NCBI GenBank assembly: GCA_023055355.1
Contig: JALJCS010000056.1
Coordinates: forward strand, 1-64,000
Origin: Agelaius tricolor
Taxonomy: Eukaryota > Chordata > Aves > Passeriformes > Icteridae
Reading direction: 5' to 3'
Length of the DNA stretch: 64,000 nucleotides
Part shown: piece after piece, positions 8,470 through 59,799 of the stretch
Layout of the letters: the number at the start of each line of letters is the position of its first letter
Position numbering within the stretch: the first letter of the stretch is position 1
Translations under genes and position numbers: made by a program
Notes under the pieces: model-generated
What the model was told of the DNA's origin: nothing
The model's input: only the letters and a program-made list of their open reading frames with translations
Databases searched by the model: none

Positions 8470-8521
8470 TTGTAAGGCCAGAGCTTTTGGTATCCACTGC
8501 TTACCATCCCTTGTAAACCAA

Positions 8522-28130: not shown

Positions 28131-28146
28131 ATGGTGAATAACATAT

Positions 28147-28554: not shown

Positions 28555-28574
28555 ACATATGTAACACTGGTTGC

Positions 28575-30110
28575 TGAATGGCACTTAGTTCTCCTAGGAC
28601 CCTCACCCAGGAGGCGAGAACTGCACTGGAGTCCAGGAGACAATGTCTGCCAGGCAGGCCCACAGGTGCCAGCAGGGCCTGCCCTTCAAGTTCATCATCT
28701 TGGGTAAGTTACCACACCTCCATAGAGTGATCTTCCAGTGGGAAACTGCCCAGGCAGGGAAAAGCGACCAGGACAAGAAGGACCCACTCTTAATCATAGA
28801 GTGGGTCTTCCTCAGTGACAACAGGGCCAAAAGGATGACAAGGCCACAGGAGCTGGTGGCAGAACTGATCCGGAAGGCAAGGATTTGGATCAGGGAATTG
28901 GCAGGGTGTGACTTTGACTGCATCCATATCTCCTTAAAATTGAAATCAGGCCAACTAACTAAAGTAATGTTAGAACAATTGCTTCAAGAGAATGAAGCCC
29001 TGCAATTTGCGCTGGACAGCTACACAGACCAAATTTCGATCCATCGACTGGCCCACAAAATTTTTAATTTGGACGTTCAATTTACTTTATCACTGACAAG
29101 TATTCAGAGCAGGATGCCTCTAAAGGCACTGACAGTTTTCAGTGATGCGTCTGGAGCATCCCACAAGTCAGTGGTGACTTGGAAAGATCCTCAAACTCAG
29201 CAGTGGGAGGCAGATATTGCCAAGGTGGAAGGATCACCTCAAATTGCTGAGTTGGCCGCCGTTGTCAGAGCCTTTGAGAGGTTCTCCGAGCCTTTTCATT
29301 TAGTTACTGATTCAGCTTATGTGGCAGGTGTAGTGTCTAGGGCAGAGAATGCTGTGTTGCAAGAAGTCTCCAACATTCCTTTGTATAAATTGCTCTCAAA
29401 ATTAGTAAAAATAATCTCCCACCGAGAACAACCCTTTTATGTGATGCATGTCAGGTCACACACAGACCTGCCGGGGTTCATTGCAGAAGGTAATCGTAGG
29501 GCTGATGCCCTTGTGGCACCAGTCAAGATGGCCCCACTCCCAGACATATTCCAACAAGCAAAGGTCAGTCACCAGCTTTTCCATCAAAATGCACCCGGCT
29601 TGGTTCGGCAATTCCACCTGACACGCGAACAAGCCCAGGCCATCATAGCCACGTGCCCTTCTTGTCAACACCATTCACTACCCTCCCTAAGTACAGGGCA
29701 AACCCTAGGGGTTTGCAGAGCTGTGAGGTGTGGCAGACAGATGTAACCCACATCTTGTCATTTGGCAAATTTAAATATGCCCATGTCTCTGTGGATACTT
29801 TCTCTGGTGCCATCTATGCTTCTGCCCACACAGGGGAGAAGGTCTCCGACATAAAAAAACATTTCATGCAAGCCTTCTCCACATTAGGAATCCCTAAAGT
29901 CATCAAAACAGACAATGGCGCAGCATACAAGTCCAAGGAGTTTCGGAGCTTCCTGCAGCAATGGGGAATAGAACATAAGACAGGTATCCCCTATTCCCCG
30001 ACAGGCCAAGCCGTGGTGGAGAGGGCCCACCAGAGCCTAAAAAAGGTCCTTCACCAACAACAGGAGGCTATTTAGGTGGAGTCCCCTCAAGTCCGGCTGT
30101 CCAAAGCATT
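28575..30110 (+). pseudogene. pol: ERVK pol 3' part: RT end, RNase H, integrase
   Basis: An open frame (28643-29746, 367 codons) carries the end of RT, RNase H (VFSDASGASHKS near 29135, AELAAVVRAFE, TDSAYVAG near 29310, HTDLPG) and the integrase zinc region (SHQLFHQN; CPSC near 29655). A shift near 29690 moves to a second frame (29653-30075) with the integrase core: WQTDVTH near 29733, TDNGAAYKS near 29910, VVERAHQSLKK near 30015. All three DDE residues are present. The frame ends at a TAG at 30073. The homologous region in provirus 2 runs only to RNase H. Confidence 0.88.
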
Positions 30111-30524
30111 GTTCATGCTGAATTTTTTAAATTGCACCTATGAGAACCTTAACCCACCCATCATGAGGCACTTTAAGACAACAGTCAGTACAACCTGAAA
30201 GCCCAGCCACCTGTCCTCATAAAAGACCCTGAGACTTGGAAAACAGAGGGGCCCTATGAGCTCATAACCTGGGGTAGGGGATATGCGTGCATATCTGCTC
30301 CCTCAGGCTAGAGATGGATCCCCTCAAAGTGGGTAAGACCATACATTCCGAAAGTGTCAAAAAATAAACCCACGGCACAGGTAGCCAATGTCTGCTGGAG
30401 GAGGAAGCGCCGTCAGACTCTTTAAAGTTAAGTTGCTATTACCTGAACCTTACTCCTAACATTTTTTATCTTCAGTTTTTTCAGTGTTTCCCCTTGATCT
30501 AAACTCAGCCCCTGTACCATCAGA

Positions 30525-31818
30525 ATGAGCCCCATCCTTCTGCTGCTCCTGTTGTCAGCCGTCCATCCAAGTCAGATGTGGATCGTTTCTCAGCCTCAGG
30601 CGAATGTATGGACCACTCTTGCCAGAGTCCTCAACCAAGATCACATTTGCCTGTCCGCCTCCTCCGTGTCTGACCTGATGTCTACCTGCCTTGTGGGGAT
30701 CCCATCTAAATCCAGTGAGTTTCCACCAACAATAGCAACCCCCTTTTTTCCAGTATATAATCCGTTAGCCCCTTGGGCAAAATTAGTTCACAGACAGACA
30801 ATAACAGAGAAGGAACCCCAAGAATTCAAGCTCCTCAGTTCTGCAAAAGCATTCTATTGTGTTCAGTTTATGTTTAAACCGAAAGACCAGGTAAATTTGT
30901 ATCAGGAAGTCAAACAGTTTAAAGAAAACTACACAGCAAAAAATTGGTGTAAGAAAATTTCCCATGTGGAGATGTCATCCACCCCTGATAATAAGCCCCG
31001 TGCCCTCCCTAAAGGGTTTTTCCTCATTTGTGGTGACAGGGCATGGGCAGGCATCCCCTCTCGTCTAATCGGAGGTCCATGCACCATTGGAAAGCTGAGC
31101 CTGTTTACACCCAACAAGACCCAAATCATGGATTGGCGAACCAAAACCAACGCCCACAATTCGGCCCACAAAAAGAGAGACTTAAGGAATTTAGACCCAA
31201 ATTGTGATTCTGAAATTGCACATTGGTCCTAAACCAAAAGGTGTTGCAATCACTGTGTTTTTGCCATGGGTGTCTGCAGCCAAGGCTCTAGGTGAATTAT
31301 CACAGCTAGAGTGTTGGGTTGCTAAACAGGCCAATATTACATCAGCTGCACTTTCTGACCTCCTGGCAGACTATGAAACAACAAGGCAAGCCACCCTACA
31401 AAATCGTGCCGCAATTGATTTTCTTCTCCTACTGCATAATCATCGGTGTGAGGACTTTGAGGGTCTCTGTTGCCTGAACCTGTCATCCAAGGTTGAGGAC
31501 ATCCACAAAATCATCAGAAAGATGCAACAGATGATCCAGGACATCAAACAGGAATCAACAGACTGGATGGACGGACTTTTCCAAGGATGGGGACTCTCGG
31601 GCTGGGTCAGATCCATACTAAAGTCTGTACTTTTAGTTTTGCTTGTTTTTTTTGTTATTTTGATCAGCTTTGGGATCATCAAGAGCATTGTGGCCAAATT
31701 AATATTGAAAGCTACTTCCCCCTTAGAGATCAATCAGGTGACTGTTCCCACCGCTCCCAAGGAAGAAACAGGAGCCCCTGCAGTGTTCATAAAACAGCCT
31801 TGGTTTGCCGATGCTTGA
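30525..31818 (+). pseudogene. env: ERVK-associated env (SU and TM), one frameshift
   Basis: Envelope glycoprotein. The surface part (30525-31232, 235 codons) starts with a hydrophobic signal (PILLLLLLSAVHPS) and carries a basic site (AHKKRDLR) near 31165. The transmembrane part is open in another frame (31204-31818). It shows a hydrophobic segment resembling a fusion peptide, the coiled-coil LQNRAAIDFLLLLH, a C-x6-CC motif (CEDFEGLCC) near 31447, a membrane span (SVLLVLLVFFVILISFG) near 31622-31680 and a cytoplasmic tail. The C-x6-CC form is typical of alpha- and gammaretroviral TM subunits. A shift near 31200-31235 separates SU from TM, so it is not intact as read. Confidence 0.88.
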
Positions 31819-31878
31819 GATCAGCCCAAGCTGTTTTAATTTTTTAGACTTAAGTGCCTCTCCCTTTTTATTTAAATG

Positions 31879-31890
31879 AAAAGAGGGAAA
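31879..31890 (+). promoter_or_regulatory. Polypurine tract (plus-strand primer site)
   Basis: AAAAGAGGGAAA directly abuts the TGTTGTAG start of the LTR at 31891. This is the expected env-PPT-U3 junction of a normal 3' LTR. Confidence 0.85.
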
Positions 31891-32544
31891 TGTTGTAGTG
31901 TGTTTTTATACTTTGTAATACTTTGTAATAGATTTTTGTATCCCCGTATTTTTCCCAAATGGTTTACCCCAGATTTTACCCCCTCCCTCTACCTGTGTAA
32001 TCCCTTTCCTTTGCTGAGATCATCCCCAAATCCCCACCCTGGCTCTCTGTCAATCACTCAGCATCCCATCCCCTCCATCTAGAACTTTCGGTCTAGGACG
32101 TCGAGTGATTAGCCAGAGGCTAGGAGTCAACCCCCCAAGTGTTTCTCCATATGCTGACCTAAATGTCCATTTCTCAGTATCCATACCTTAATTTTTCTTA
32201 TTGGTTAGTAAAATGTTATCTACTTTAGGTTTCCACCTCCCTTTAAATGTAACCTTGGCACCTCTCCCAGGGCTCTCAGCAGGAGGCCCCCTGAGGTTTA
32301 GGGGCTCCCCGGAGCTCCTGAATAAAACCTTGGATTAACCCCTGCTAAGAGTTGGCCCTTTTATCCTCTACCGATGTCTCTAGCGTCTCTTCTGCTGCAA
32401 ATGAGACTAGCCTAGCTGCCTTCAGTACCCTTGGGGCACAAGAGAGTGTGTCCCTGCTGTCGGCTGAGTCAGGGTTGCCCCCCTGCTGTCTGCTGAATCG
32501 GGGCTGCCCAGGGTTCCTGAGGGGCTTCCAGAGAGATGGAGACA
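31891..32544 (+). repeat. ERVK LTR (provirus 1, direct orientation)
   Basis: Starts TGTTGTAGTGTG and ends GGAGACA, with AATAAA near 32323 and TTTAAATG near 32243. It acts at once as the 3' LTR of the upstream pol-env piece (polypurine tract on its left) and the 5' LTR of the downstream gag-pol piece (primer binding site on its right). Confidence 0.9.
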
Positions 32545-32547
32545 GCT

Positions 32548-32565
32548 TGGCAAACACCGTGGGGG
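32548..32565 (+). promoter_or_regulatory. Degenerate primer binding site
   Basis: TGGCAAACACCGTGGGGG lies 3 bp after the LTR end. It corresponds to the better conserved TGGCGCCCAGCCGTGGGG at 46415 in provirus 2, which resembles a tRNA-Lys-type site. Confidence 0.6.
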
Positions 32566-32997
32566 CCTGAGAACACCCCCCCAGATCTCACAGATGGGGC
32601 TCAGACATTCTTTCAAACTGTTCACCAAAGCCCTTGGCTGGCAAGTTACCTCAGTGAGAACACACTCAGTTTTAATGAGTTGCTCTTCTGCGGATGAGAC
32701 TGGTAGCTCTTGATACACCCCAAGAGTCAGTTTCAGGTAGAGGACATCATACCAGGACCATCCTCTTTCCTCTTCTACAGCTGGATTGGTAAGTTTACCT
32801 TTTTCTTGTTTTTCTCCCCTCTTTGGGAGGAGGGATGTTTTCCTGCCTTTGTTTTTACGGCTCTCTGAGGAGTGCCAAGTTTTTTCCTATTTTTGGCAGG
32901 CTGCCAGCTGCAGGTGTTTGTCTCTTTTCTCTCCCCCCCCCTTCTACCTGGGTTGGTGAAAGTTATTTGAGATACAAAACTTTAAATCACAGCCACA

Positions 32998-34881
32998 ATG
33001 GGTGTTAGGCTTTCTGTATATCATAAAGGTGTCTATTATCATCTTTTAGATTTTGTTAAGAGTGAGGAAATCCGATTTTCAAAAAGAGATGTTAAACAAT
33101 TTGTTAGATGGCTGTTCCCTCATTTCCCCGATGTATCAGCTGAATATATTCATGTCTTGGCATTCTAGGACAAAACTGGCAATGAGTTATTGAGAGCAGG
33201 GAAGTCAGGTGATAAATCTCTGTCAAAATTTGCCTTTTTAGCTATGCAGATCAGAAATATTGTAAAATCCAAATCAGAAATGCAGGAACAGCCATCTGGA
33301 AGCAATTTGAACGCCTCTGCTTCCCAGAAACCCGATCCATCCCCCCCAAATTATGTTCTCCCTCTCCTAGCCCTTTTTCCTCACCCCCAGCCTTGAGACG
33401 GGGCAATCTGAAGAAAGCTACATTTCCTAGCTTCCCTCAGAAGCTCCCAGTCTCTAATTCAGAGAGTTCTGGCCAAACTCCCCGGGATTCTACCCTTCCC
33501 CATACTTCCCCAGTTCTCAATACCCCATCCCAAAAACCTTCAGCTCGTTTTGAGCCTCCCAATCCACCTCCGGAGCTTTCCCCAGAGGTCCAAGATGGCC
33601 GCGGCCACATGGTAGCTCCTGTGTCTTCTTCTTCTCCCCATAATCCCTTTCACTTGTCCAACCCATTCAAGTCAGAAAACCCCTCCCCTGAAACCCTCCC
33701 TCCCAGCACTCTTCCTCTTCCTCTTCCTCTTCCTCTTCCTCTTCCTCTTCCTCCTCCTCCTCCTCCTCCTCCTTCTCCAGCTCCACCCCCCTCCACCCCC
33801 TCAGGGGCATGCCCATCAGCTGTCCCCTCCCTTCGCCCATCCCACACCCCACCCTCCAGCTCCCACGTCAGAGAAACCAGAGATGATGAGCCTGGGAGCC
33901 AGAACCCAGAAACAACACCAGTCCTCTCTGCAGCTCCTGTATCATACATATCGGATTTGAGAGGTGGAATTCAGCCGTATTGGACTCCTTTTTCCTTTCA
34001 ATCTACCAAAGAACTAGTCAAAGCCCAAAAAGAATTTGATAGAAACAGTGAATATTTCAGAGGACTTCTTAAAGCTATGCTTTCTGCTAATGCCTTAACC
34101 CCTGCTGACATCAAACAGCTTTTTTCCTGCCTGTTATCCCAAACTGAATACCTCTTGTGGGAAGCAGCATGGAAAAAAGAAGTGAGAGCCAGTTTACCAG
34201 CCCTGTGGGCTGATGAGGTCACCACCACTGATGGTTATGGTAACATGAGTAGACCATCTCTGTGGACAAGGGGAGTGGGGGGATGGAGCAAGTCAGGCAG
34301 AGGGCATTCCTAGAAAGGCTCTCAAAGAAAGTGTTAAAGCAGCTGAGAGAGCTTTCTACGGGTTGCGTCCTGATGTTCCATTTGAGAACTATTTGAAAAT
34401 AACACAATCTTCATTTGAGTCCTTTTTGAGTTTTGTGGAAAGGTTGAGAAAAGCTGTGGACTTGCAAATTCAGAATGAAGGAGCCAGGATTGAAGTCCTC
34501 ACTGAGATTGCTAAGCAAAATGCCAATGAGAAGTGTAAAGCTGCCATCCTGAGCTTGCCCCTCGATCCAACACCAACACTACAAGCAATGCTAGAAGTGT
34601 GTGCGAGGAAAGTTACCATCACTCCTGCTGATCAGGATGAGAGACCGAAACCACTGAGGAGGATTGCAGCTGCGGACGCCCCTGATCCACCATCCACCAG
34701 CCAGCTTCAGCGCGTCACAATGCCACAGGAGAAAATCTCCAACTCTAACCGACCCTGCCACCTTTGTGGGAAATTAGGGCATTGGATGCCCAACTGCCCT
34801 CTGAAAAAACAGTTTTTAGATTTTAAATACAATAAGCTTAAAGATCAGAATTCCCCAAAAGAGAACCTTCCAAAAAACTAG
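32998..34881 (+). pseudogene. gag: ERVK gag, provirus 1 (broken)
   Basis: Full-length outline of a betaretrovirus-like Gag, collinear with the intact 629-codon gag at 46854. The ATG is at 32998, followed by a matrix domain. A TAG near 33165 and a shift near 33400 break it. The proline-rich linker contains a CTTCCT/CCT microsatellite (about 33712-33775) coding Pro-Leu and poly-Pro. A further shift near 34290 precedes the capsid major homology region (SFESFLSFVERLRKAVD near 34412) and a zinc knuckle, CHLCGKLGHWMPNC, near 34757. AAAAAAC at 34872-34878 directly precedes the TAG stop. Confidence 0.88.
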
Positions 34882-36110
34882 ATGAAGAGCACTCTTTTTC
34901 CCGGCGCTATGACAAAAATAGGGTCAGTCCAATTCCAGCACGGGGGGGGGGGGGGGGAACATAAAACCAAGTTTAAGAGACCTACCTGTGCCAAGTCAGA
35001 CACTTGCATTGGACAGGACAAAACATTCATTTAACTGCGACAATCCCAGACCAATTCTAACTACCAATTCTCCCCATAACCCTTTCAGATTGGCACTGAC
35101 AGAGCCTCTCCATCTCAAGGACACTAACTGGCATTTCATAACTGTTAACCCTGAACAGCCAGGTACTTGGACACAGCTTTGCCAGAAACGTCACAGAAAA
35201 TATGTCATCCTTGGGGACACAATACACACACCCCAGGAAATTAACATTCCTCCGGGTCTCATATCATGAGACCTGAAGCAGTTTGTCATTTGGCTACACT
35301 GTACTCACCCACACGTGTACCTGCCCAAAGGCCAAATAATAGCCCAAGCCATCCCAGTGCCTGAGCCTCCATGGAACCAGGAGCAGGCAGACACCCTCAG
35401 AAATAAATTCCATCCCAACGTCTGCTGGACTCAGGTATTAGGAAGAGAAAAAACCCAAGTTATCATGTGGGTTGCACCAGAATGGGGAGTACAAATCTAT
35501 GCAAGGACTTCTAGATACCAGAGCAGATGTTATGATCATTCCCTCCAGGGAGTGGCCGTCACATTGGGAATTGCAAAACGTGGCAGGACACGTGCAAGGT
35601 GTAGGGGGCATCCAATTAGCAAGACAATCAAAAAGCGTTGTCCAAATTGAGGGACCAAAGGGCAAAGTGGCTTCCATACGCCCATTTGTTTTAGACTACA
35701 CAGAACCCCTCTGGGGCAGAGATCTGATGGTCCAGTAGGGAACCACAATTGACATCCCAGAAACCCCACAGGTTTTTCGGGCGGCGGCCACTGAAGAGTG
35801 CTCTACCCAAAAGCTGATTTGGAAAACTGATTCTCCAGTATGGGTAGAACAGTGGCCGCTCAACAAAGAAAAATTAAAGGCGCTTGAACAGCTCGTAGAG
35901 GAGCAGCTACGAAAGGGTCACATCATGGAGACCACATCACCATGGAACTCCCCTGTCTTTGTCATTAAAAAACCCAACAAAGACAAGTGGCAACTCCTCC
36001 ATGACCTCCTTCAAATCAACAACGTTATTGAAGACATGGGCTCTCTCCAACCAGGGATGCCGTCAGTGACCATGCTCCCACAGAATTGGAATTTAGCTGT
36101 GATTGACATC
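34882..36110 (+). pseudogene. pro-pol: ERVK pro and RT N-terminus, provirus 1 (broken)
   Basis: Contains the dUTPase-like block (34988-35390), a protease region with the active site changed to [12 protein letters not shown] (near 35508; the related copy has LDTGAD), and the start of RT (NKDKWQLLHDL near 35975). There is a TGA at 35267, a TAG at 35736 and several shifts. A G run of about 17 lies near 34941-34957. A solo LTR interrupts RT at 36111. Confidence 0.85.
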
Positions 36111-37093
36111 TGTCACAATCCGTCCTTACAGATGTGTTTTGTGATGGTTTGTGGATTGATCTCAGGGTGCAAAAAACCAACATGGCACAGGGGATTTGCA
36201 GTAATAATCAAAACAAATGCACCTTTATTAAATGACCACAGCAAAATGTGATAGAGAGATTAAGGAAGAGAAAAATATAGAGAAAGAGAGAGAAAGGAGA
36301 GAAAGAGAGAGAAAAAGAGGGGGATATAGCTACCAAATGTAGAGACGAAGTCCTTTGGTCCAGTCCAGTCGAGGATCTGCCTGTTACATCGGGGAGATCT
36401 CAGAGGCGCAGTTCATCTGGACCCCAATTATACTCTTTTTCGATGGGGGAAGGGGGAATGGATTTTGCAACCGAATCAAAGGTAATTTATTGTATCTTCG
36501 GGGGGAAAGAATGGTGTTTGGAAAAGGGGTACACACAGTCCATGTTTGGCAGTGGGCGAGAGCCATTGTTTTCGTGGTCCACTGCCTGCACCTGAAACAT
36601 CCATCTTGCTTTGGGCAGCTTTCCTTCCCCGCCGCACACCTCCCCTGGGTTGGGGGTTTTAGTCCCAGCCCCTGGAAGAAGGTGAGAGGGAGCCTTCTCA
36701 CATAGGGATTTCATGTCTCAGTCTTGATGAAGAGGCTTCTTACATCTCAGTCTGTCTGTCACGATGGTTGTTAAGCAGGTGAGGGTCTTCTGTGGGAGAC
36801 CACCCGAAACTCAGGAGAAGTCCAGCCAGGCCAAGAGGTGGGACAGCTTCCAAGGCTACTGTTGCAAAAAGGGCACGGTGCCCCCTTCTTCTTCTCATTG
36901 GGCTCAATGTAGCATACAGCAAACAACACCTGTGAAAACAATAACTTAGCAATGCTCTCAGGTCGCGGGGCCTTGTTGGCATGTGACTTTCTCCTTCAGA
37001 GCTAGAGATTTTAGACAGGGGGGTTCTTCTCTTCAGTGGTCCCCAAATGACGATCGTGAGGCAGATGAGAGATATTTCGGACAGACTCTCACA
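36111..37093 (-). repeat. Solo LTR in the RT of provirus 1
   Basis: The plus-strand ends are TGTCACAATCCG and GACTCTCACA. A perfect 5-bp target duplication, ACATC, flanks it at 36106-36110 and 37094-37098. Reverse-complement AATAAA near 36225 gives the minus orientation. A GA-rich tract lies at about 36250-36320. Confidence 0.9.
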
Positions 37094-37617
37094 ACATCAG
37101 ACTGTTTTTCAAATTCCCCTGCATCCTGACGGTGCCCCTTGTTTTGCCTTCTTGGTTCCCACCATTAACCGAGAAGCCCCAATGAAGAGATACCACTGGA
37201 AAGTACTCCCACAAGGTCTCAAAGTCAGTCCTGTGATTTGCCAGCGGTACGTCTCTTCCTTGCTGTCCCCAGTCTGTGTAGCTACAGGAGATTCCATCAT
37301 CCTGCACTACATGGATGACATCCTGGTGTGTGCCCCAACAGATGACATGCTTACTCACACACTTGACCTGACAATCAATGCATTGGTTGCTGCAGGGTTC
37401 GAGCTCCAGGAAGAAAGATTTAAAAGATGCCACCTTGGAAGTACCTGGGTCTGGAAATTAGAAAGCGGACCATTGTGACGCAAAAATTAGCCATCAAGAA
37501 CAACATCAAAACCTTAGCAGATCTCCATCAATTGTGTGGGTCTTTAAACTGGGTAAGACTTTGGCTAGGCATTTCCACCGAGGACCTAGCCCCCCTATTC
37601 AATTTGTTAAAAGGGGG
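37094..37617 (+). pseudogene. pol: ERVK RT middle part, provirus 1
   Basis: Continues RT after the LTR. The catalytic site is LHYMDDILVCAP (near 37303) and the following thumb region (DLHQLCGSLNWVR near 37517) is readable with one shift near 37420. Pol stops abruptly at 37617 where the inverted LTR begins. Confidence 0.87.
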
Positions 37618-38259
37618 TCTGGAAGCCCCTCAGGAACCCTGGGCAGCCCTGATTCAGCAGACAGCAGGGGGGCAACCCTGACTCAGCCGACAGCAGGGAC
37701 ACACTCTCTTGTGCCCCAAGGGTACTGAAGGCAGCTAGGCTAGTCGCATTTGCAGCAGAAGAGACGCTAAAGACATCGGTAGAGGATAAAAGGGCCAACT
37801 CTTAGCAGGGGTTAATCCAAGGTTTTATTCAGGAGCTCCGGGGAGCCCCTAAACCTCAGGGAGCTTCCTGCTGAGAGCCCTGGGAGAGGTGCCAAGGTTA
37901 CATTTAAAGGGAGGTGGAAACCTAAAGTAGATAACATTTTACTAACCAATAAGAAAAATTAAGGTATGGATACTGAGAAATGGACATTTAGGTCAGCATA
38001 TGGAGAAACACTTGGGGGGTTGACTCCTAGCCTCTGGCTAATCACTCGACGTCCTAGACCGAAAGTTCTAGATGGAGGGGATGGGATGCTGAGTGATTGA
38101 CAGAGAGCCAGGGTGGGGATTTGGGGATGATCTCAGCAAAGGAAAGGGATTACACAGGTAGAGGGAGGGGGTAAAATCTGGGGTAAACCATTTGGGAAAA
38201 ATACGGGGATACAAAAATCTATTACAAAGTATTACAAAGTATAAAAACACACTACAACA
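37618..38259 (-). repeat. ERVK LTR in inverted orientation (right end of provirus 1)
   Basis: Reverse complement of 31891-32532, with only a handful of differences. It ends CACTACAACA, the mirror of the U3 start. The innermost 12 bp of U5 are missing at the pol junction. The sequence after it (CTGTGTGAGAC) does not repeat anything next to the left end of the element. Confidence 0.9.
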
Positions 38260-40211: not shown

Positions 40212-40608
40212 TATAGGTGATATTTTTGCCCGACGTCCGGGAGAAATGATGATGAGGACTCCATCTTATCAGAAGGCTAATTAATTACTTTATTATACTT
40301 TATTATTCTATACTATATTACACTATATTACATTACATCTAAACTGAATCTGCCAAGCACTCAACTGCCCTACATCTCGGGACTGTCAGCCGACAGTCCC
40401 GACACACACACGTGGATTCAATTGGTCAATGAATCAAAACACTCACACCAGAATCCAATTACCAATTCCCTTCAGGTAAACAATCTTCCACAATGCATTC
40501 CACTTGTGAACAACACAGGCGCAGCAAATGAGATAAGAATTGTTTTGATCATTCTTTTCTCTGCTTCTCTCACTGCTTCTCTCAGGTTCAGAGAATGTGA
40601 ATCCCACA
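40212..40608 (-). repeat. Solo LTR, family X
   Basis: A perfect 6-bp target duplication, GAAATC, flanks it at 40206-40211 and 40609-40614. Ends at GTGAATCCCACA. Confidence 0.9.
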
Positions 40609-43938: not shown

Positions 43939-45745
43939 CAACCTTAACTCATAACCTCAAACTGAACTGGCTGATCCAATCCAATTATTCTAAAACTAAC
44001 AATAATTAGTTAGGAACATGTGGTGTGAAACTCTCACTCTTTGGAGCTTCACATCTAAACATTTTCCTAGCAACAGTAAATATGTATAACATGCATGGTT
44101 CAAAATTAACTGCTTAGCAAATAAAATCACTTAAGGTAAAAAAAAATTACTGTACTTTGGAATTTACAACTTATTTTTCCACATGATCTGTACCAAGTGT
44201 ATTGGTTTGTCATGGCCTGGTTTCTGGTAGCAGGGGGGCAACAAAGATGGCTCCTTTGGGAAGCTAGTGGAAGCTTCCCACCATGACTGGCAGAGCCAAT
44301 GGCTGATGTCTCTGAAGATGGACATGGTGCTGCTGGCCAAAACTAGGCCAATGAGAGAGGTTGGTGACGCCTCTGTGATGACATATTTAGGAAGAAAATC
44401 AAAACAAAATCACACAGGTTTTGCTTCTAGTCAGAGAAGAGGAGGAGGTGAGAACATGTGAGGGAAAACAACATGGCAACATCAAGACCAGTAGAGAAGG
44501 AGGGGGAGGAGGTGGTCCAGGCATTAGAGCCAAGATTCCTCTTCAGGCCATGGTGATTACCATGGCAAAGCAGTCTGTTCCCCTTCAGCCCATGGGTCCA
44601 CGGGGAATGCAGTGCATTCCCCCCACAGCCCATGGGGGGGTGCTCAGCCAGAGTGGGTGGATGCCTGGAGGAGGCTGTGATCCAGTGGGAGACCCCATGG
44701 AGAGAGGGGGCCCCTGCTTCCAGGCTGCAGCAGCCTGTCCTTGGAGGACTGCAGCCCATGGAAAGAGAGACCCATGTCGCAGCAGTTTTGGGAAGACTGT
44801 CTGCCTGTGGGAGGGGCTCACGTTGCAGCAGGTGTGGTTTGGGAGGACCGCTGCTTGTGAGAGTGGACCTATGCCAGAGAAGTTCATGGAGAACTGTCTC
44901 CTGTGGGAGGGACCCCACAGTCTCACAGAGGAAGGACTCCTCTCCCAGAGCAGTGGAAGAAAATTTCAGTGATAAACTCACCAAAACCCCTAGGCCCTGT
45001 CTTCCTGCGCTGTCAGTGCGAAGGGGGGAGGGGCTAGGGGAGAAATAGTGTTTTAAGGGCTTATTTTACTTCTCATTATCCTCCTCTGATTCTGTTAGTA
45101 ATAAATTCACTTTTCAACCTTAAGTTGAGCCTTTTTTGCCCTGGAAGTATTTTCTCCCGGTCCTTATTTCACTCATTAGGCCTTTGTTATTTTTTTTCCC
45201 TTTATCCCTCTGTGGAAACGTGATTGGCTGGGATAAATGGTGGTTTAGCCTCAGGAGCATATACCAAAGGCATTAACCTGAGACCATGGGAAACAGGATA
45301 CTGTAAAAGCCAGGTCATGGCGAGTAGAATGTGGTCATGGGAATTAGTAGTATGCGAATAGAACTATCCTATATTTGGTCAGGTTTCTGGTTCTTGTTCT
45401 CAGATGGTTCAGACCCTGTTACAAATAAGGTCAATGTCCTAGGGTGACGTTATGATGCTTGTATCCCCATTCATGTGTTCTGTTCATGCTGGATATTATG
45501 TTCTGTGCCTTCAAGACTGGCTTGGAAGAGTGAAAGTTTTGTTTTGGTTTCTTATCAGCCGCTCCCCCACAGCTGGTGGGACACAGAGATGGGGCAGTAC
45601 ATAGTGCTGCTTTTGCTTTTTTGCTTTTGCTTTTCGCTTTGCTCTTGCTTCTTGCTTCTGCTCATTAGCTAGTTTAGCTAAACAGTCCAAATTTCTTCCT
45701 GGACTGTTTCTCCTTTCCTTTTTTTGGACCTACTCGAACCTGCTC

Positions 45746-46411
45746 TGTTGTAGTGCGTTCTTATATTTTGTAATACCTTGAAGTAGTTTGTTTTGTATTC
45801 CCATGTTTTTCCCAAATGGTTTATCCCAGACTGTACCCCCCCCCCTCCTTTTCCCTCTACTTGTGTTATCCCTTTCCCGGGATAAGATCTCCAAAACCCC
45901 CACCCTGGCTCTCTGTCAGTCACCTCGACATCCCAGACCCTTATCCAGAAGTTTCGGTCCAAGTTGTCGAGTGATTAGCCAGAGGCCAGAGGTCAGCCCC
46001 CCAAGTCCTGCCCCATACGCTGTTTTGTATGTCTATCCCCCCAGCACCCATCCCCCAGAGATACCTATTGGTTAGTAGGATTTTATCTATGTTAGTTTCC
46101 TCCCCCCTTTAAATGTGAGCTCCGGACATCCCCCAGGGCTCTCGGCAGGAGGCCCCTGAGGTACAGGAGCTCCTTCCGGACTCCTTAATAAAACCTTGGA
46201 ATATCCCCTGCTGGGAGACGGCCCCTTTCCTCTTCCACCGACGTCTCGGTCGTCTCTGCTGCAACGAAGGCAACCAGCCTGAATGCCCTCAGCACCCTCG
46301 GGGCACAGAGAGTGTCTCCCCGCAGTCGGCCGTGGTGGGGTCACCCCCCCACTCTCTGCCGACCCGGGTAAGGCCCAGGGACATTGAGAGGCCTGCAGAG
46401 AGACTGAGACA
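45746..46411 (+). repeat. ERVK LTR, left end of provirus 2
   Basis: Starts TGTTGTAGTGCG and ends GACTGAGACA, 666 bp. TTTAAATGTGAG near 46108 and AATAAAACCTT near 46185 mark the promoter and polyadenylation regions. Confidence 0.93.
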
Positions 46412-46414
46412 GCT

Positions 46415-46432
46415 TGGCGCCCAGCCGTGGGG
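46415..46432 (+). promoter_or_regulatory. Primer binding site
   Basis: TGGCGCCCAGCCGTGGGG, 3 bp downstream of the LTR end. It resembles the TGGCGCCCAACGTGGGGC site that pairs with tRNA-Lys in betaretroviruses, with a few differences. Confidence 0.75.
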
Positions 46433-46853
46433 CTCTGAGACCATTCCAGGAGCCCACGGAAAGGGGCTCGGACATTCTTTCAGTCTGTTCGATAAGCCTT
46501 TGGCCGGCAAGCTACCTCGGAAGAACACACTCCGTTTTAGTGAGTTGCTCTCCTGTGGACGAAACTGGGAACTTCAAAGTACCCTAAGAAGTCAGTTTCA
46601 GGTGGAAATCAACATCCCAGGCTTTTTTGTTCCCCTGTCCTGCAGCTGGATTGGTAAGTTTTACCCTTCTCTTGTTTCTCCCCTCTTTGGGAGGGGGTGT
46701 TTCCCTGCCCTTTGTTCTCAGGCCCGCCGCGGAGGGCCGCAGTTTTTTTGCCTCTCTATTGTGGGCAGGCTGCCAGCTGCAGGCTTTTTTTCTCCCCCCC
46801 CCCCCACCTGGGTTGCTGAAATTTGAGATACAAATTTAAAATCATAGCCAAAA
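46433..46853 (+). other. 5' leader of provirus 2
   Basis: Untranslated leader between primer binding site and gag, expected to hold packaging and splice-donor signals. None can be pinned down by eye. A C run of about 13 lies near 46795-46807. Confidence 0.6.
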
Positions 46854-48743
46854 ATGGGTGCTAGGCTTTCTGTATCTCACAAGGGTGTCTATTATCATCT
46901 TTTAAACATTCTTAAGAGTGAAAAAATCCGATTTTCAAAAACAGATGTTAAACAGTTCGTCAGATGGCTTTTTGTTCACGTTCCTGACGTGTCCACTGAA
47001 AATCTCAGTGATTTGGCTTTTTGGGACAAAATTGGTAGTGAATTATTGAAGGCAGGGAAATCAGGAGACACCTCTCTGTCAAAATTTGCTTTTTTAGCCC
47101 TGCAGATAAGAAATGTTGTAAAATTTAATTTAAAGATGCAAGAACAGCCATCTGGCAACAGTTTCAATACCTCTGTTTCCCAAAAACCCGATCCACCCCC
47201 CTCCAAGTTCGGTTCTCCCTCCCCCACCCACCTTTCCCCAACCCCAGCCCCGGCACAAACCCCTGCCCCCCCCCAGAGGCTCCCTGTCTCCAACCCGGAC
47301 ACTTCTGCCCTGAATTCCCGAGATCCCACCCTCCCCCCTGCTTCCACAAGTTATAATACCGTGTCTCACAACCTTAGTGCCCGCCTTTGTACCCCCAAGC
47401 CGCGTCCGGTAATCCCCTCTGACCATAATGGTGGACACCACGTGGCAATGCTGGTTTCCTCTCCTTCCCATAATCCCTTTCGCTCTTCCAACAACCCATT
47501 CTGCTCGGAGCACCCCGCCCCCGAAACCCGCCCTCCCTGTGTCCTTCCCCCGGCCCCTCCTCCGGCCCCTCCCGCCCTTCCCCCGGCCCCTCCTCCGGTC
47601 CCTCCCGCTCCGGCCCCGGCCGCCCCTCCTGCTCCGGCTCGGGCCGCCCCTGCCCCCTCAGAGCTCTGCCCGCCCGCCGCGGGCTCCCTCCGCCCCCCCC
47701 ACGGCCCGCCCTCCGGCTCTCAGAGCAGTGTAACAAGAGACGCTGTCGCCGGCAGACAGAACCCGGAAACAGCACAGTCCTTTTCTGTTGCCCCTGTCTC
47801 ATATATTCCAGATGTCACCGGGGCATTCCAGCCAAATTATAGCCCCCTTTCTGTTGATTCTGTTAAAGAACTAGCCAAAGCCCAAAAAGATTTTGGGAGA
47901 TCAAGTGAATATTTTAGAGGGCTCCTTAAAGCTACATTATTCGCTCACATTCTAACCCCTGCTGATATAAAACACCTTTTTTCCTGCCTGTTATCCTCTT
48001 CTGAATATCTCTTGTGGGATGTTGCATGGCAAAAAGGATTGAGAGCAATTTTACCAGCTCTGTGGGCGGATGAAGCTACTGCTCGTGATGTTTATGGTAA
48101 CATGTTATCTCTCGACCATCTCTGTGGACAGGGGGGTTGGGAAGATAGCTTGACCCAGGCAGAAAGCATTCCCACAAGGGCTTTCAGAGAATGTGCTAGA
48201 GCAGCTGAGAAAGCTTTCTTTGGGCTCCGTCCTGGTATTCCAATTGAGAATTATTTGAAAATAACACAATCTCCATCTGAGTCCTTTTTGAGTTTTGTGG
48301 AAAGGTTGAGAAAAGCTGTTGAATTGCAAGTTCAGAATGAAGGAGCCAGGATGGAAATCCTCACCGAGATTGCTAAAGAAAATGCCAATGAGAAGTGCAA
48401 AGCTGCTATTCTCAGCCTGCCTCTTGACCCAACGCCTACGCTGCAGGCCATGCTTGAAGTGTGTGAGAAGAAAGTTACCATTACCCTCGCTGACCACGAT
48501 GAGAGACCAAAACCACAGAGAAGGATTGCTGCAGTGGAAGGCCCTGAGCCATCATTCACCAGCCAGCTCCAGCATGTCACGATGCCACAAGAGAGAATCT
48601 CCAGCTCTAATAGACCTTGCCATCTTTGTGGGAAGTTAGGGCATTGGATGCCTGACTGCCCTCTGAAAAAGCAGTTTTTAGATTTTAAATACAATACGCT
48701 TAAAAACCAGAATTCCCCAAAGGACCACCTCTCAAAAAACTGA
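46854..48743 (+). CDS. gag: Gag polyprotein, intact frame (provirus 2)
   Basis: A 629-codon open frame from ATG 46854 to TGA 48741-48743. In order: a matrix domain (about residues 1-95; starts MGARLSVSHKGVYYH, probably myristoylated at Gly2), a long Pro/Ala-rich linker (about 100-290, built of PAPP repeats), a capsid with the major homology region SPSESFLSFVERLRKAVE (about 475-495), and a nucleocapsid with one zinc knuckle, CHLCGKLGHWMPDC (about 588-601). The matrix and overall layout fit class II/betaretrovirus-like ERVs, although those often have two knuckles. Gag alone could in principle still form particles. That is inference. Confidence 0.93.
   Translation: MGARLSVSHKGVYYHLLNILKSEKIRFSKTDVKQFVRWLFVHVPDVSTENLSDLAFWDKIGSELLKAGKSGDTSLSKFAFLALQIRNVVKFNLKMQEQPSGNSFNTSVSQKPDPPPSKFGSPSPTHLSPTPAPAQTPAPPQRLPVSNPDTSALNSRDPTLPPASTSYNTVSHNLSARLCTPKPRPVIPSDHNGGHHVAMLVSSPSHNPFRSSNNPFCSEHPAPETRPPCVLPPAPPPAPPALPPAPPPVPPAPAPAAPPAPARAAPAPSELCPPAAGSLRPPHGPPSGSQSSVTRDAVAGRQNPETAQSFSVAPVSYIPDVTGAFQPNYSPLSVDSVKELAKAQKDFGRSSEYFRGLLKATLFAHILTPADIKHLFSCLLSSSEYLLWDVAWQKGLRAILPALWADEATARDVYGNMLSLDHLCGQGGWEDSLTQAESIPTRAFRECARAAEKAFFGLRPGIPIENYLKITQSPSESFLSFVERLRKAVELQVQNEGARMEILTEIAKENANEKCKAAILSLPLDPTPTLQAMLEVCEKKVTITLADHDERPKPQRRIAAVEGPEPSFTSQLQHVTMPQERISSSNRPCHLCGKLGHWMPDCPLKKQFLDFKYNTLKNQNSPKDHLSKN
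48734..48740 (+). promoter_or_regulatory. Ribosomal -1 frameshift site (A AAA AAC) at the end of gag
   Basis: The heptamer A AAA AAC sits in the gag frame immediately before the TGA stop. Reading from it in the -1 frame gives an uninterrupted passage into the pro-pol frame at 48785. The same heptamer is conserved before the gag stop of provirus 1 (34872-34878). Confidence 0.85.
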
Positions 48744-51319
48744 GTAAAGAGCGCTCCTTTCCCAAGCGCTATGACAAAAATAGTGTGGGCTCAATTCAAG
48801 TACGGGGGAGGGAAAAGAAATCTAGTGTAAAAGATGTATCGGTGCCAAACGAGGCACTGGCTTTGAACAAAACAGAACATTCATTTCATTGGAATAATCC
48901 CAGACCAATTTTAACCACTGACTCTTCCCATAACCCTTACAGGCTGGCGTTGACAGAGCCTCTCCATCTCAGAGACACTAACTGGCATTTCATATCTGTT
49001 AACCCTGAACAACCAGGTACTTGGACACAGCTTTGCCAGAAACGTCACAGTAAGTATGTCGTCCTTGGGGACACAAAACACACACCCCAAGAAATTAATA
49101 TTCCCCCGGGTCTCATATCATCAGACCCGAAACAATTTGTCATATGGCTTCACTGTACTCATCCACCCGTGTACTTGCCCAAAGGCCAAATCATAGCCCA
49201 AGCAATCCCAGTGCCTGAGCCTCCATGGGACCAGGAGCAAGCAGACACCCTCAGAGGTAAACTCCATCCCAATGTCTGCTGGACTCAGGTATTGGGAAAA
49301 GAAAAACCCAAGCTATCATGTGGGTTACACCGTGGTGGCGAGTACAAATCCATACAAGGACTTTTAGATACCGGAGCAGATGTCACGATCATTCCATCTA
49401 AAGAGTGGCCATCACACTGGGAATTGCAAAACGTAGCAGGACACGTGCAAGGTGTAGGGGGAATTCAATTGGCAAGACAGTCAAAAAACGTTGTTCAAAT
49501 TGAGGGATCCAATGGCAAAATAGCTTCCATTCGCCCGTTTGTTTTAGACTACACAGAGCCCCTCTGGGGCAGAGATTTAATGGTTCAATGGGGAACCACA
49601 ATTGACATCCCAGAAAACCCGCAGGTTTTTCGGGGAGCGGTCGCTGAGGTGCGCCATGCCCAAAAATTGACTTGGAAAACTGATACTCCAATAAGGGTAG
49701 TTCAGTGGCCGCTCAATAAAACCAAATTAAAGGCGCTTGAAGAACTTGTACAAGAGCAGTTAGAAAAAGGTCACATTGTGGAGACCACGTCGCCATGGAA
49801 TTCGCCTGTCTTTGTCATTAAAAAACCAAACAAAGACAAGTGGAGACTACTCCATGACCTCCGTCAAATCAACAACGTTATTGAGGACATGGGCTCCCTA
49901 CAACCAGGGATGCCCTCACCAAGCATGCTTCCACAAAATTGGTCTTTAGCTGTAATTGACATCAAAGATTGTTTTTTTCACATTCCCCTACATCCTGACG
50001 ATGCTCCGCGTTTTGCCTTTTCGGTTCCCACCATTAACCTGGAGGCCCCAATGAAGAGATACCATTGGACGGTCCTCCCTCAGGGACTTAAAGTCAGTCC
50101 TATGATTTGCCAGAGGTATGTTTCTTCCTTGTTGTCTCCAGTCCGTGAAGCTGCAGGAGATTCCATCATCCTGCACTACATGGATGACATCCTGGTGTGT
50201 GCCCCAAGTGATGACATGCTTACTCACACACTTGACCTGACAATCAATGCATTGGTTGCTGCAGGGTTCGAGCTCCAAGAAGAAAAGATTCAAAAGATGC
50301 CACCTTGGAAGTACCTGGGCCTTGAGATTGGAAAGCGGACCATTGTGCCGCAAAAATTGACTATCAAACATGATATCAAAACCTTAGCGGATCTCCATCA
50401 ACTTTGTGGATCCTTAAATTGGGTGAGACCTTGGCTAGGCATTTCCACCGAAGACCTAGCCCCCCTTTTCAATTTGTTAAAAGGGGGAGATGACCTTAGT
50501 GCTCCTAGGACCCTCACCCAGGAAGCGAAAACCGCACTGGAGAAAGTTCAGGAAATCATGTCTACTAGACAGGCCCACAGGTGCCAGCAGGGTCTCCCCT
50601 TCAAATTTATCATCTTAGGCAAATTGCCACACCTCCATGGTATGATTTTTCAGTGGGAAACTGTCCAGGCAAAGAAAAAGGACCAGGTCAAGAAAGATCC
50701 CCTCTTAATTATAGAGTGGGTCTTTCTCAGTCACAACAGGTCAAAAAGGATGACAATGCCACAAGAGCTGATGGCAGAATTGATCCGGAAAGCAAGGATA
50801 CGGATCAGAGAATTGGCAGGGTGTGACTTTGACTGCATTTACATTTCCTTAAACCTGAAATCAGGCCATTTGTCTCAAGCAATGCTAGAGCAATTTTATC
50901 AAGAGAATGAAGCCTTGCAATTAGCCCTAGATAGCTACACAGGCCAAATTTCGATTCACAGACCGGCCCACAAAATTTTCAACTCAGATGTTCAGTTTTC
51001 ACTATCACTGACAAGTATTCAGAGCAGGACACCTCTAAAAGCACTGACAGTTTTTACTGATGCGTCTGGTGCGTCTCACAAGTCAGTGGTAACTTGGAAA
51101 GATCCCCAAACTCAACAGTGGGAAGCAGATATTGCCAAGGTGGAAGGATCACCCCAAATTGCTGAGTTGGCCGCTGTAGTCAGAGCTTTTGAGAAGTTTC
51201 CTGAGCCTTTAAATGTAGTTACTGATTCAGCTTATGTTGCAGGTGTAGTGTCTAGGGCAGAGAATGCTGTGTTGCAAGAAGTTTCCAACATTCCTTTATA
51301 TGAATTACTTTCTAAGTAA
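48744..51319 (+). CDS. pro-pol: dUTPase-like/protease/RT/RNase H frame, 3'-truncated (provirus 2)
   Basis: One open frame, at least 844 codons from 48785 and open back to the frameshift site. In order: a dUTPase-like block (about residues 55-150; LPKGQIIAQAIPVPEP near its end), an aspartic protease with LLDTGADVTIIPS (near 195), RT with RLLHDLRQINN, VIDIKDCFFHIPL and the catalytic LHYMDDILVCAP, a connection, and RNase H with VFTDASGASHKS, AELAAVVRAFE and VTDSAYVAG. YMDD fits class II. The frame ends at TAA 51317-51319, at the junction with the inverted LTR, before the last RNase H motif. There is no integrase. Protease and polymerase share one frame, so one frameshift instead of two would make Gag-Pro-Pol. 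Confidence 0.92.
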
Positions 51320-51321
51320 GC

Positions 51322-51989
51322 TGTCTCAGTCTCTCTGCAGGCCTCTCAATGTCCCTGGGCCTTACCCGGGTCGGCAGAGAGTGGGGGGGTGACCCCACCA
51401 CGGCCGACTGCGGGGAGACACTCTCTGTGCCCCGAGGGTGCTGAGGGCATTCAGGCTGGTTGCCTTCGCTGCAGCAGAGACGACCGAGACGTCGGTGGAA
51501 GAGGAAAGGGGCCGTCTCCCAGCAGGGGATATTCCAAGGTTTTATTAAGGAGTCCGGAAGGAGCTCCTGTACCTCAGGGGCCTCCTGCCGAGAGCCCTGG
51601 GGGATGTCCGGAGCTCACATTTAAAGGGGGGAGGAAACTAACATAGATAAAATCCTACTAACCAATAGGTATCTCTGGGGGATGGGTGCTGGGGGGATAG
51701 ACATACAAAACAGCGTATGGGGCAGGACTTGAGGGGCTGACCCTTGGCCCCTGGCTAATCACTCGACAACTTGGACCGAAACTTCTGGATAAGGGTCTGG
51801 GATGTCGAGGTGACTGACAGAGAGCCAGGGTGGGGGTTTTGGAGATCTTATCCCGGGAAAGGGATAACACAAGTAGAGGGAAAAGGAGGGGGGGGGGGGT
51901 ACAGTCTGGGATAAACCATTTGGGAAAAACATGGGAATACAAAACAAACTACTTCAAGGTATTACAAAATATAAGAACGCACTACAACA
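51322..51989 (-). repeat. ERVK LTR in inverted orientation, right end of provirus 2
   Basis: Reverse complement of 45746-46411 with about four substitutions noticed and a longer G run. It begins TGTCTCAG, preceded by AAGC, which mirrors the GCTT that follows the direct LTR before the primer binding site. It ends CGCACTACAACA at the 6-bp target duplication. Confidence 0.94.
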
Positions 51990-52594
51990 CTGCTCCAGAC
52001 TGGGACCTGGGAACACCTAGAATTTGCACCCTGTGGCCTGCAGCAGCTATCCCCAGCGCCGGAGGGATTGATAACAGAGCGACCACCCCCAAGAGAGACT
52101 TTCTGAATTTGTCATCTTTTTCAGAGCGGTAAAAGAGTGGTGTCATCTGGTATTGTTCATTTTGTGTGCTGGGGGGTGCTGTGCCTGATAAATAAACAGG
52201 TTCTTTCCACTTCTCTCCAAGGAATTCTTCCCGAACCGGTTGGGGGGAGGGGCTGTGTGGGTTTGCTTTCTGGAGGGGCCCCCTTTTGGAGATTGTCTTC
52301 CAAATTTGCTCTAAACCAGGACAGTCATGTTCTGAGTTTGCATCTATGATTGGACTCTTGACCTCAGAAGACTCCTATACCTTGTTGCGTTTGCCATGCC
52401 CCCCATTAAAGTCTTTATGTTTTGGACAAGGCCACCATCATACCTGTTCCTTATTTTGCCAGTTCCCCCTGACTAAGCTGAACTATGGGTCACAGCAAGC
52501 AAAGCAAAGACTGCGATGGTGGGGGGGGAGGAGAATGAGTGAGTGACTCTCGTGGGTGCCTGGCATTGGGCCAGCGTCAAACCACAACACCAAG

Positions 52595-54817: not shown

Positions 54818-54879
54818 ATAGGTTACGATTTTCATACATAAAAGGTAGACAAAAACTATACAACTAAAGCAAGCATGAG

Positions 54880-56294
54880 TGTCCTGGTTTGAAAAGGAAG
54901 TGAGTTTTTTGGAATGCTGTGGTCAAACCAATAGGTGCTCAGATTTGAATATTGGCACCTGGTGTGGCCACTGAGGACATGTATACGCCTCCGAGAACAC
55001 AGGGGGTTAAAACCAGAGAACTCCCAGGGGGAAGCTCTCTTGGGTTCCGGTGGTCCGTGAAGGAAGTAAGACCTCCCCTGCCCAACTGTAGGCTGGGTGG
55101 GGGAGGGGAAGCCATGCGGCCGGGTGAGGTAGGCCGGAGCCTTGGACAGAGAAGGGAGGTGAAGGCCTTTGCAGGATGGAAGGGTGGAGGAGCACCGAGA
55201 AATATTGGGCAGCCACCTCCTCCCTGCCGCCCCCCCCGCCCCGCCGAGAGAGAGAGCTGGTGCCTGTGCCACCTTGAAATTGGATAGCATGGCCGGCCGA
55301 GATGGAGAAGGGGGGAGGGTGTGGCGAGAAGGTGCCTGGCAGGGCCGTTTTTAGAGTTCTCGACAGGCAGAGCCTGAGATTTTTACCCCTTTCCTTGGAT
55401 GATGGAAACCTTACAAATGCTGATCCTCCTGGAGTTGAATGAGAAGAGAGATAGAGATGAGAAAAGAGGAAATGGGCCATGAGAGAAGTTGAGAAGAATC
55501 TTGGGTGGGAGGAGATGATGGAGTGGCCTTTGGCTGGACTTTTCTTGTATAGCCATGGACAGAACCATTTTTCCTGTGACACAGAGACTGCATTTAGGGG
55601 GAGGCAATGGCTTGGAGCCAAGAGAGTGCAGTGATGTTATTTGAAAGAGTGCGTGAACAGAGACGACAGGTGAGGAGGGTGGTGGTGTCCTCCATCTTCA
55701 GCGAAGAAGAAGATCTCTGTTCTCGAGACCCCTCGGCCCCAGGGGGTGAATTTGGGGGGAACAGGTATCCCAAAAGTGAGAGACTGTGCTTTTTTTTGGA
55801 ACTGGGCAAAACATCCTTAAAAGGGGAACCCTAGAAGCAGCTCTGGTCCATTCACAGTGGTGAGAGCACTGTACATGGAAGGAAGATGTCACGATGGCAA
55901 ATTATCTCCAGGTGGTGCCACGTGTGACATGGAAACACAAGAGGTCTCAACTGTGTTTCCAGGGGAAGCCTATGGTACAAGAAGGACTCCTCTCCTCTTG
56001 ATGAACTGAGAATTGATTATCTAAAGGGTGGTGATAGAGTGAGAGTTGGTGATCTGAGGGGTGGATGTATTGGAAATTTGGTGGGGGGAGGAGGAATGTT
56101 TTTTGGAAGGTTTTCATTTTGAGTTCTGTGTGTGTTTCTCTTTATATAGAGTTGTAGGTTAATAAAGTTTTTTCTTCTTTATTCCTAAGTTGGAGCCTGC
56201 TTTGCTCTATTCCTGGTCCCATCTCACAGCAGACACCAGGAAGCATATATTTTCATGGGGGGCACTGGCATTGTGCCAGCGTCAAACCGTGACA
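54880..56294 (+). repeat. Solo LTR, family F1
   Basis: Starts TGTCCTGGTTTGAAAAG and ends GCGTCAAACCGTGACA. AATAAAG near 56161. No target duplication was found. It is clearly diverged from the F1 copies in the palindrome. Confidence 0.85.
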
Positions 56295-58668: not shown

Positions 58669-59799
58669 CTACTGTTTTTTTTTAAATGGAAGTTACACAC
58701 CTTATGTCTACAGGATGAAATGTGTTATAGAATCAGTCACTGATTCACTACTAAAGCCCTTCAAAGTTGCTGTACAAATAACTCATCTGTACTTTTCTGT
58801 GGCAACACATTATAGAGCTACATAAATTTTAGATTTACTAAAACATTCATAAACAAGCAAAAGTTATTATAAAAATATCTACAAGATTTACAACTTCAGC
58901 TAAACAACCTTTATGAGCTTTTTTTTTTCCTTATTCACCCAGAACATGATGCCCTCCCAGTCTGGAAGTTTTGGTTAACTCAGCTGAAAAGGTATTAATT
59001 ATATTAAATAAGAGACATTTCTTTTTTCCCTTGCTGAGTGCTCAGACATATATATATATAGACCTAAGAATATAAATGCACTTATGCCTATATAGAGCTG
59101 AGAGAGAAAGAAGAAAAGAACAACTTTAAATAAGAAAAAACAATCCTGTAAAAACAGCTATCAGTTCCTTACTCTTCCTTCTCTTCCTCTTTCAGCTTTC
59201 TGTTACCATTCCTTCACTACCATAAAGTATTTAGTGTTCATTAAAAACAATAGGATAGGAACTGACAAGAACTTGTCACTTATTACAAGAAGTAATTCCT
59301 TTTTCCAGACATATCCTGATGCTGAACAAAAAGAGAAAAAAAATAACAATGCCATAGTAGTAACACAGTCTGACTATTAGAAATGTCTGCTCAAGCATGG
59401 CAGAAACAATAAAGCTAATATGCTGTTGTTCTTAATTCACCTTGACCATTGTAATGTTGCAGTCTAATGTAGACTATAAAGATTTAAGTGCTAAGTCCGC
59501 CTTGACTTAAGTGGGAATGCGAGTACTAAAGAAGGATAAGAAGTACCAGTTAGGGAGGTAGTCACACCAGTTTTTGTTATTGATACAGAAATCCATTCAT
59601 TGATACATAATCAGTCCTAGGTTAGGCTTAGGAGAAATGCCTGCATACTAACAGCTAAATGAAAAGTGTTTTCAACTCCTCTTTCCGCTTCGACATTTTA
59701 ACACATTCTTTTCAAGAAAATGTAGACTACCTAAGGGTTTCTTTCTCTACATGTGAGATTAAAGATTTCATAAAAACAGCTTACATTAGTAGAGGTTAG
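58669..59799. other. Intron-like sequence
   Basis: AT-rich, with a short TA repeat near 59050. No coding frame or repeat family recognised. Confidence 0.5.

What the first reader, a model, noticed from the sequence alone, without database searches (positions are those of the whole stretch)
45740..51995. A provirus that integrated with its two LTRs in inverted orientation
Seen directly: LTR (+) at 45746-46411, gag and pro-pol, then the same LTR reversed at 51322-51989, all enclosed by a perfect 6-bp duplication CTGCTC inside a Y LTR that rejoins cleanly. A normal provirus has LTRs in direct orientation. The duplication implies that a linear DNA with two U3 ends was used by integrase as a unit, so the inversion arose before or during integration and not by later recombination. 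LTR similarity and open gag and pro-pol frames make it recent. I am not aware of a described ERV group with this form; it may be a tolerated by-product of reverse transcription, or a non-autonomous form that spreads with help from full-length relatives.
Basis: partly seen in the sequence, partly recalled or inferred. Interest (0 to 1): 0.88.

Follow-up and report, generated by a model that had tools for sequence, protein, structure and literature searches.

The report
Provirus with two inverted end repeats
This stretch, likely from a songbird genome, holds a virus-derived insert whose two end repeats face each other instead of pointing the same way, with a second, differently joined case 7.5 kb away, and both likely arose when a short DNA intermediate of viral copying was joined at the wrong place.

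Summary
Element E2 (45746-51989) is a class II (ERV-K-like, bird) provirus with LTRs of 666 and 668 nt in opposite orientation, U3 ends outermost, between a 6-bp CTGCTC duplication; its joined flanks run without a break through two paralogous host LTRs. The junctions differ (E2: pol at 51317, U5 end plus 4 nt; E1: pol at 37617 = E2 50487, U5 minus 12 nt), so they look like two separate births. E1 is also circularly permuted: RNaseH-IN-env-PPT-LTR-PBS-gag-RT-inverted LTR, with pol cut at one point. Both junctions speak against autointegration. Best reading (inferred): plus-strand strong-stop DNA (U3-R-U5) was joined by its 3' end inside pol instead of transferring at the PBS; in E2 this gave DNA with two U3 ends that integrase inserted. 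A spreading inverted-LTR family is not supported; a recurrent by-product is. No genome-wide search could be run. New variant of a known kind; interest 0.62.

The parts
45740..45745 (.). E2 target-site duplication, left copy (CTGCTC)
   Evidence: empty site against two paralogs
45746..46411 (+). E2 left LTR, U3 outermost, TG...CA; TTTAAA at offset 362 and AATAAA at offset 441
46412..46432 (+). E2 spacer GCT plus primer-binding-site-like TGGCGCCCAGCCGTGGGG (Lys-type label recalled)
   Evidence: sequence
46848..48743 (+). E2 gag, open stop to stop (631 aa)
   Evidence: 73% identical to a Molothrus aeneus Gag-like protein
48704..51319 (+). E2 pro-RT-partial RNase H, open stop to stop (871 aa); its stop TAA is formed at the junction
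51318..51321 (-). E2 junction: AAGC, i.e. GCTT read on the minus strand, the 4 nt that follow the LTR in the left copy (spacer GCT plus first base of the PBS)
51322..51989 (-). E2 right LTR, inverted, U3 outermost
51990..51995 (.). E2 target-site duplication, right copy (CTGCTC)
28577..31890 (+). E1 segment B: RNase H, integrase, env (Avian_gp85), ending in a PPT; first base uncertain by a few nt
31878..31890 (+). E1 polypurine tract GAAAAGAGGGAAA directly before the LTR
   Evidence: sequence
31891..32544 (+). E1 left LTR (654 nt)
32545..37617 (+). E1 segment A: PBS, gag, pro, RT, ending at the position of E2 50487; broken by stops, frame changes and a nested insertion
36111..37093 (+). 983-bp LTR-like insertion (TGTCAC...CTCACA) inside E1 RT, flanked by ACATC
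37618..38259 (-). E1 right LTR, inverted, lacking the last 12 nt of U5; 637 of 642 nt identical to the left LTR
45433..52323 (+). Host LTR ('Y') split by E2

Best explanation
E2 is a provirus with inverted LTRs and a 6-bp target-site duplication, and it likely arose because plus-strand strong-stop DNA (U3-R-U5) was joined by its 3' end to the interior of pol instead of transferring at the primer-binding site. Shown: LTR orientation, precise U3 ends, the duplication, the junction just past U5, the cut in RNase H, and a second case (E1) with another junction. [quoted passage not shown] Joined at pol, by priming on a second packaged RNA or by an end-to-end template jump, it was extended through gag to the PBS. 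In E2 a second strong-stop DNA then made the normal left LTR, giving linear DNA with two blunt U3 ends that integrase inserted with a 6-bp stagger. In E1 copying likely went on round the genome (R to R, U3, PPT, env, IN) until the RNA template ended at the same point of pol, which would explain why A and B are complementary parts cut at one point, and why only the U3 end of E1 is clean. Both U3 promoters point inward, so the loci are predicted to transcribe convergently and make double-stranded RNA; neither should reproduce its own form.
For: E2 ends, duplication and empty site. Inverted homology extends to GCTT, past the CA. E1 is permuted around one LTR, with A ending at E2 50487 and B starting within a few nt of it, no 6-nt overlap, PPT in place. 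The two junctions differ. Four LTR copies in the window, 2 of 2 pairs inverted. Four of the five E2 LTR substitutions lie within 19 nt (shuffle share 0.0005, a post hoc test), as if the two LTRs came from two slightly different RNAs. Precedent for the step: minus-strand strong-stop cDNA moving to random positions of HIV-1 RNA without homology in vitro (PMC10986323, abstract and passages); strong-stop DNA of one packaged genome used on the other proposed for asymmetric HIV-1 LTRs (PMC9278108, passages).
Against: Neither junction shows shared bases, while RT template switches often leave a few (recalled); a plain end ligation would look the same. E1 has no target-site duplication and its left end is explained only by assuming one-ended insertion or repair; a weak likeness of its two flanks (ACACTGG..TTGCTG, shuffle share 0.0185) is unexplained. 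E1 carries 4 in-frame stops and at least 5 frame changes against E2 although its LTRs differ at only 5 of 642 nt, so its LTR pair may have been homogenised or its parent was already broken. Strong-stop mispriming is documented in what I read only for minus-strand DNA in vitro. No reads or other genomes were seen.
Confidence: 0.5

Rival explanations
1. Two cDNAs in trans: integrase inserted the U3 ends of two different viral DNAs at one site, and host end joining then united the broken pol end of one with the U5 end of an LTR-only piece of the other.
For: Gives the same 6-bp duplication and a blunt junction with an unprocessed U5 end (GCTT kept).
Against: Needs an LTR-only double-stranded DNA with a clean U3 end and an unprocessed U5 end; does not by itself explain the permuted E1 with A and B cut at one point.
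Confidence: 0.2
2. Rearrangement after integration: a normal provirus was inverted in part by chromosomal breakage, template switching or recombination between repeats.
For: The window is rich in inverted repeats, including a 15-kb palindrome at 99.3%; E1 could be read as an inversion at pol and LTR followed by an LTR-LTR flip.
Against: For E2 it would need a break exactly at the LTR/CTGCTC border; the U3 end and duplication are intact. For E1 the predicted leftover 12 nt of U5 plus a duplication left of B is not seen (sequence).
Confidence: 0.1
3. Autointegration: integrase joined the viral ends to an internal site, giving an inversion circle in which the LTRs are inverted, later inserted in the chromosome.
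For: Inverted LTRs around the PBS-gag-pol part are the anatomy of inversion circles described for retroviruses and Ty1 (PMC4751563 and PMC5314604, passages).
Against: Integrase joins CA directly to the target: E2 keeps GCTT after CA and E1 lacks 12 nt of U5. No 6-nt duplication between the A end and the B start of E1. A circle does not offer two free U3 ends.
Confidence: 0.06
4. Assembly or fold-back artefact.
For: A 15-kb palindrome lies in the same window and no reads could be seen.
Against: E2 arms differ by 5 substitutions and a 2-nt length change, flanks and duplication match paralogs, and E1 and E2 are about 75-89% alike, not copies.
Confidence: 0.07

Closest known systems
Class II bird endogenous retroviruses (ERV-K-like) of songbirds
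   Same: Gag, protease and RT domains; Pol relatives in Hirundo, Taeniopygia, Zosterops, Lonchura; E1 env matches Avian_gp85; TG...CA LTRs and a 6-bp duplication.
   Different: LTRs inverted; E2 lacks the end of RNase H, integrase, env and PPT. Of the 120 relatives listed (912 found), 108 reach E2 residue 860 and 89 of them go on for 150 aa or more.
Autointegration inversion circles (Moloney MLV, Ty1)
   Same: Two LTRs in inverted orientation around the gag-pol side of the genome (PMC4751563, PMC5314604, passages; original 1980-81 papers seen only as citations).
   Different: Those are unintegrated circles joined at CA; E2 is a chromosomal insert with two U3 ends and a junction 4 nt past CA.
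HIV-1 proviruses with inversions or asymmetric LTRs
   Same: Structural defects attributed to template switching between two packaged genomes (PMC9278108, passages).
   Different: In the passages seen, LTR asymmetry is deletion; a whole inverted LTR at the end is not mentioned there.
DIRS-1 retrotransposons
   Same: Genes enclosed by inverted LTRs (PMC5633606, passages).
   Different: DIRS uses a tyrosine recombinase; here the relatives encode a retroviral integrase and the insert has a 6-bp duplication.

Membership tests
Class II endogenous retrovirus (provirus) | gag-pro-pol with class II domains | tested here: met
Class II endogenous retrovirus (provirus) | 6-bp target-site duplication at TG...CA ends | tested here: met
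   E2. E1: not found at its ends
Class II endogenous retrovirus (provirus) | LTRs in direct orientation | tested here: not met
   both pairs inverted
Class II endogenous retrovirus (provirus) | Primer-binding site for a Lys tRNA | tested here: inconclusive
   TGGCGCCC... follows the LTR spacer; tRNA identity is recalled, not searched
Autointegration inversion product | U5 end joined at CA to the internal site | tested here: not met
   E2 keeps GCTT, E1 lacks 12 nt
Autointegration inversion product | Short duplication of the internal target site | tested here: not met
   E1 A end and B start do not overlap; E2 has no B segment to compare
DIRS-type (tyrosine recombinase) element | Tyrosine recombinase gene | tested here: not met
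   none in the three E2 ORFs scanned; E1 has a retroviral integrase core
Mobile non-autonomous inverted-LTR family | Shared junctions between copies | tested here: not met
   E1 and E2 junctions differ; only two copies, in one window
Mobile non-autonomous inverted-LTR family | Multiple copies in the genome | not testable with these tools
   The genome search did not complete in eight tries

The most novel reading that the evidence does not exclude
Proviruses with two U3 ends are a regular product class of this songbird retrovirus lineage: strong-stop DNA is captured inside pol often enough that inverted-LTR inserts accumulate, they cannot collapse to solo LTRs, and their two inward promoters make them standing sources of double-stranded RNA against the intact relatives.
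Probability: 0.25. Interest if true: 0.8.

Novelty: new variant of a known kind. Interest (0 to 1): 0.62.

Why it matters
If right, it shows that integrase in nature accepts a pair of U3 ends and that plus-strand strong-stop DNA can be captured at a wrong place, and fossil proviruses record it base by base. An inverted pair cannot be removed by LTR-LTR recombination (it only flips), so such inserts would keep their genes longer than normal ones, and two inward promoters would make double-stranded RNA; both points are inferences that a genome-wide count and small-RNA data could test at once.

Tried and rejected
Rejected: autointegration (junction not at CA, no internal duplication); a simple later inversion for E2 (needs a break exactly at the duplication); a spreading family (different junctions).

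Ten paper searches: 'inverted LTRs' with provirus and endogenous retrovirus gave 0 papers; six phrasings of inverted-LTR proviruses gave 3 papers, on BLV antisense RNA, Dictyostelium and yeast by their titles; 'inverted LTR' gave 6, none on a vertebrate ERV by title. The library lacks most subscription journals, so absence there is weak. A 1985 J Virol paper by Olsen and Swanstrom on defective retrovirus DNA is recalled as possibly relevant and was not seen; its title phrase was in no paper listed. The chicken repeat Hitchcock was recalled as a possible precedent; the passages seen class it as 'undefined' and say nothing on inverted LTRs. Five of 120 Pol relatives end 7 aa after E2's end (one search list); their tails continue the normal Pol sequence (SKLV..VSH or ISH), so they do not show E2's junction.

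Full report
What is there. Its LTRs, 45746-46411(+) and 51322-51989(-), differ by 5 substitutions and a 2-nt change in a C run, have their U3 ends outermost, and lie between two copies of CTGCTC. The 6-mer alone occurs 27 times in the window, but the joined flanks align without a break at the join to two paralogous copies of the host LTR, so the duplication is genuine. Gag and pro-RT are open. Pol stops inside RNase H at a TAA made by the junction; integrase, env and PPT are absent. Of 120 listed Pol relatives (of 912 found), 108 reach E2 residue 860, 89 of those go on for at least 150 aa, and none ends within 5 aa of E2's end. The host is a songbird by inference: Gag relative in Molothrus aeneus, 73%, Pol relatives in several songbirds.

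A second case. The repeat search of the whole window showed another inverted pair, 31891-32532 and 37618-38259. The window holds four LTR copies of this group at E up to 1e-3; they make two inverted pairs and no direct pair. E1 and E2 are not copies of one another: LTRs about 75% alike, internal stretches 78-89%. In E1 the left LTR is preceded by a PPT (31878-31890), and before it lie RNase H, integrase and env (the TLV_coat match of the env C-part is just below its cut-off). The RT part that follows the LTR ends at 37617, the position of E2 50487, and the segment before the LTR begins within a few nt of the same position. So E1 is one viral genome in circular order, cut at a single point of pol, with an inverted LTR on the cut end. 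That LTR lacks the last 12 nt of U5 and ends cleanly at U3.

What the junctions say. In E2 the inverted copy includes GCTT, the 4 bases that follow the LTR in the left copy: the spacer GCT and the first base of the PBS. By established knowledge of reverse transcription the unprocessed U5 end of linear DNA ends in that spacer, and one more base can come from the tRNA. Integrase would have removed the bases after CA. In E1 the junction is 12 nt short of CA and there is no 6-nt overlap of the two pol ends. Autointegration predicts the opposite in both. No shared bases were seen at either junction.

Mechanism. The only intermediate that begins exactly at U3 and ends near the U5/PBS border is plus-strand strong-stop DNA. 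If its 3' end is extended on pol RNA of the second packaged genome, or captured by an end-to-end jump, the product is U3-R-U5-pol'-gag'-PBS'. Normal second transfer then completes E2, with two U3 ends; going on round the RNA gives E1. This is inferred. The nearest support read is homology-independent transfer of minus-strand strong-stop cDNA to random positions of HIV-1 RNA in vitro (PMC10986323, abstract and passages). The four E2 LTR differences within 19 nt (post hoc) and the E1 differences that all lie after position 393 of 642 would fit two templates, but mutation or conversion can also give them.

Against. E1 has no duplication at its ends; its flanks share only a weak gapped match (share 0.0185 of shuffles). 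E1 has 4 in-frame stops, at least 5 frame changes and a 983-bp nested insertion with ACATC on both sides, more decay than 5 differences in 642 nt of LTR suggest. Joining in trans after integration fits E2 about as well on sequence alone. No read, allele or other genome could be checked.

Consequences (predicted). Both LTRs of E2 and both of E1 keep TTTAAA and AATAAA motifs, with promoters facing inward. E2 RNA would lack a sense R at its 3' end, so the form should not copy itself. Inverted LTRs cannot delete to a solo LTR.

Novelty. Inversion circles, proviral inversions and DIRS-type inverted LTRs are known (passages). An integrated provirus with two U3 ends and a clean duplication was not found in the searches made, in a library that lacks most subscription journals. 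I rate it a new variant of a known kind.

Noticed in passing
1-15015: Large palindrome, arms 1-6970 and 8039-15015 at 99.3% around a 1,068-nt spacer, holding a class I ERV (Gag_p30, RT, weak integrase match) on both arms with the same nested repeat in each; it runs off the window's left edge, so it is likely a chromosomal inverted duplication or an assembly fold-back.
   Followed up: partly
36111-37093: 983-bp LTR-like insertion TGTCAC...CTCACA with a 5-bp ACATC duplication inside RT of E1.
   Followed up: partly
28146-28555: LTR-like repeat, relatives at 24178-24517 and 40229-40608, sitting just left of E1 segment B; it lies between ATATATA- and TATGTA-like flanks.
   Followed up: no
21700-22701 and 44197-45201: 1-kb repeat in two inverted copies at 92.8%, 22 kb apart, no Pfam match in the ORFs scanned.
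   Followed up: no
54878-56294 and 57175-58670: Two inverted copies (81%) of a repeat of about 1.3-1.5 kb that also occurs in the palindrome arms and at 14978-16224.
   Followed up: no
45836-45850 and 51888-51900: C run of different length in the two E2 LTRs (10 and 12), the only length difference between them.
   Followed up: no
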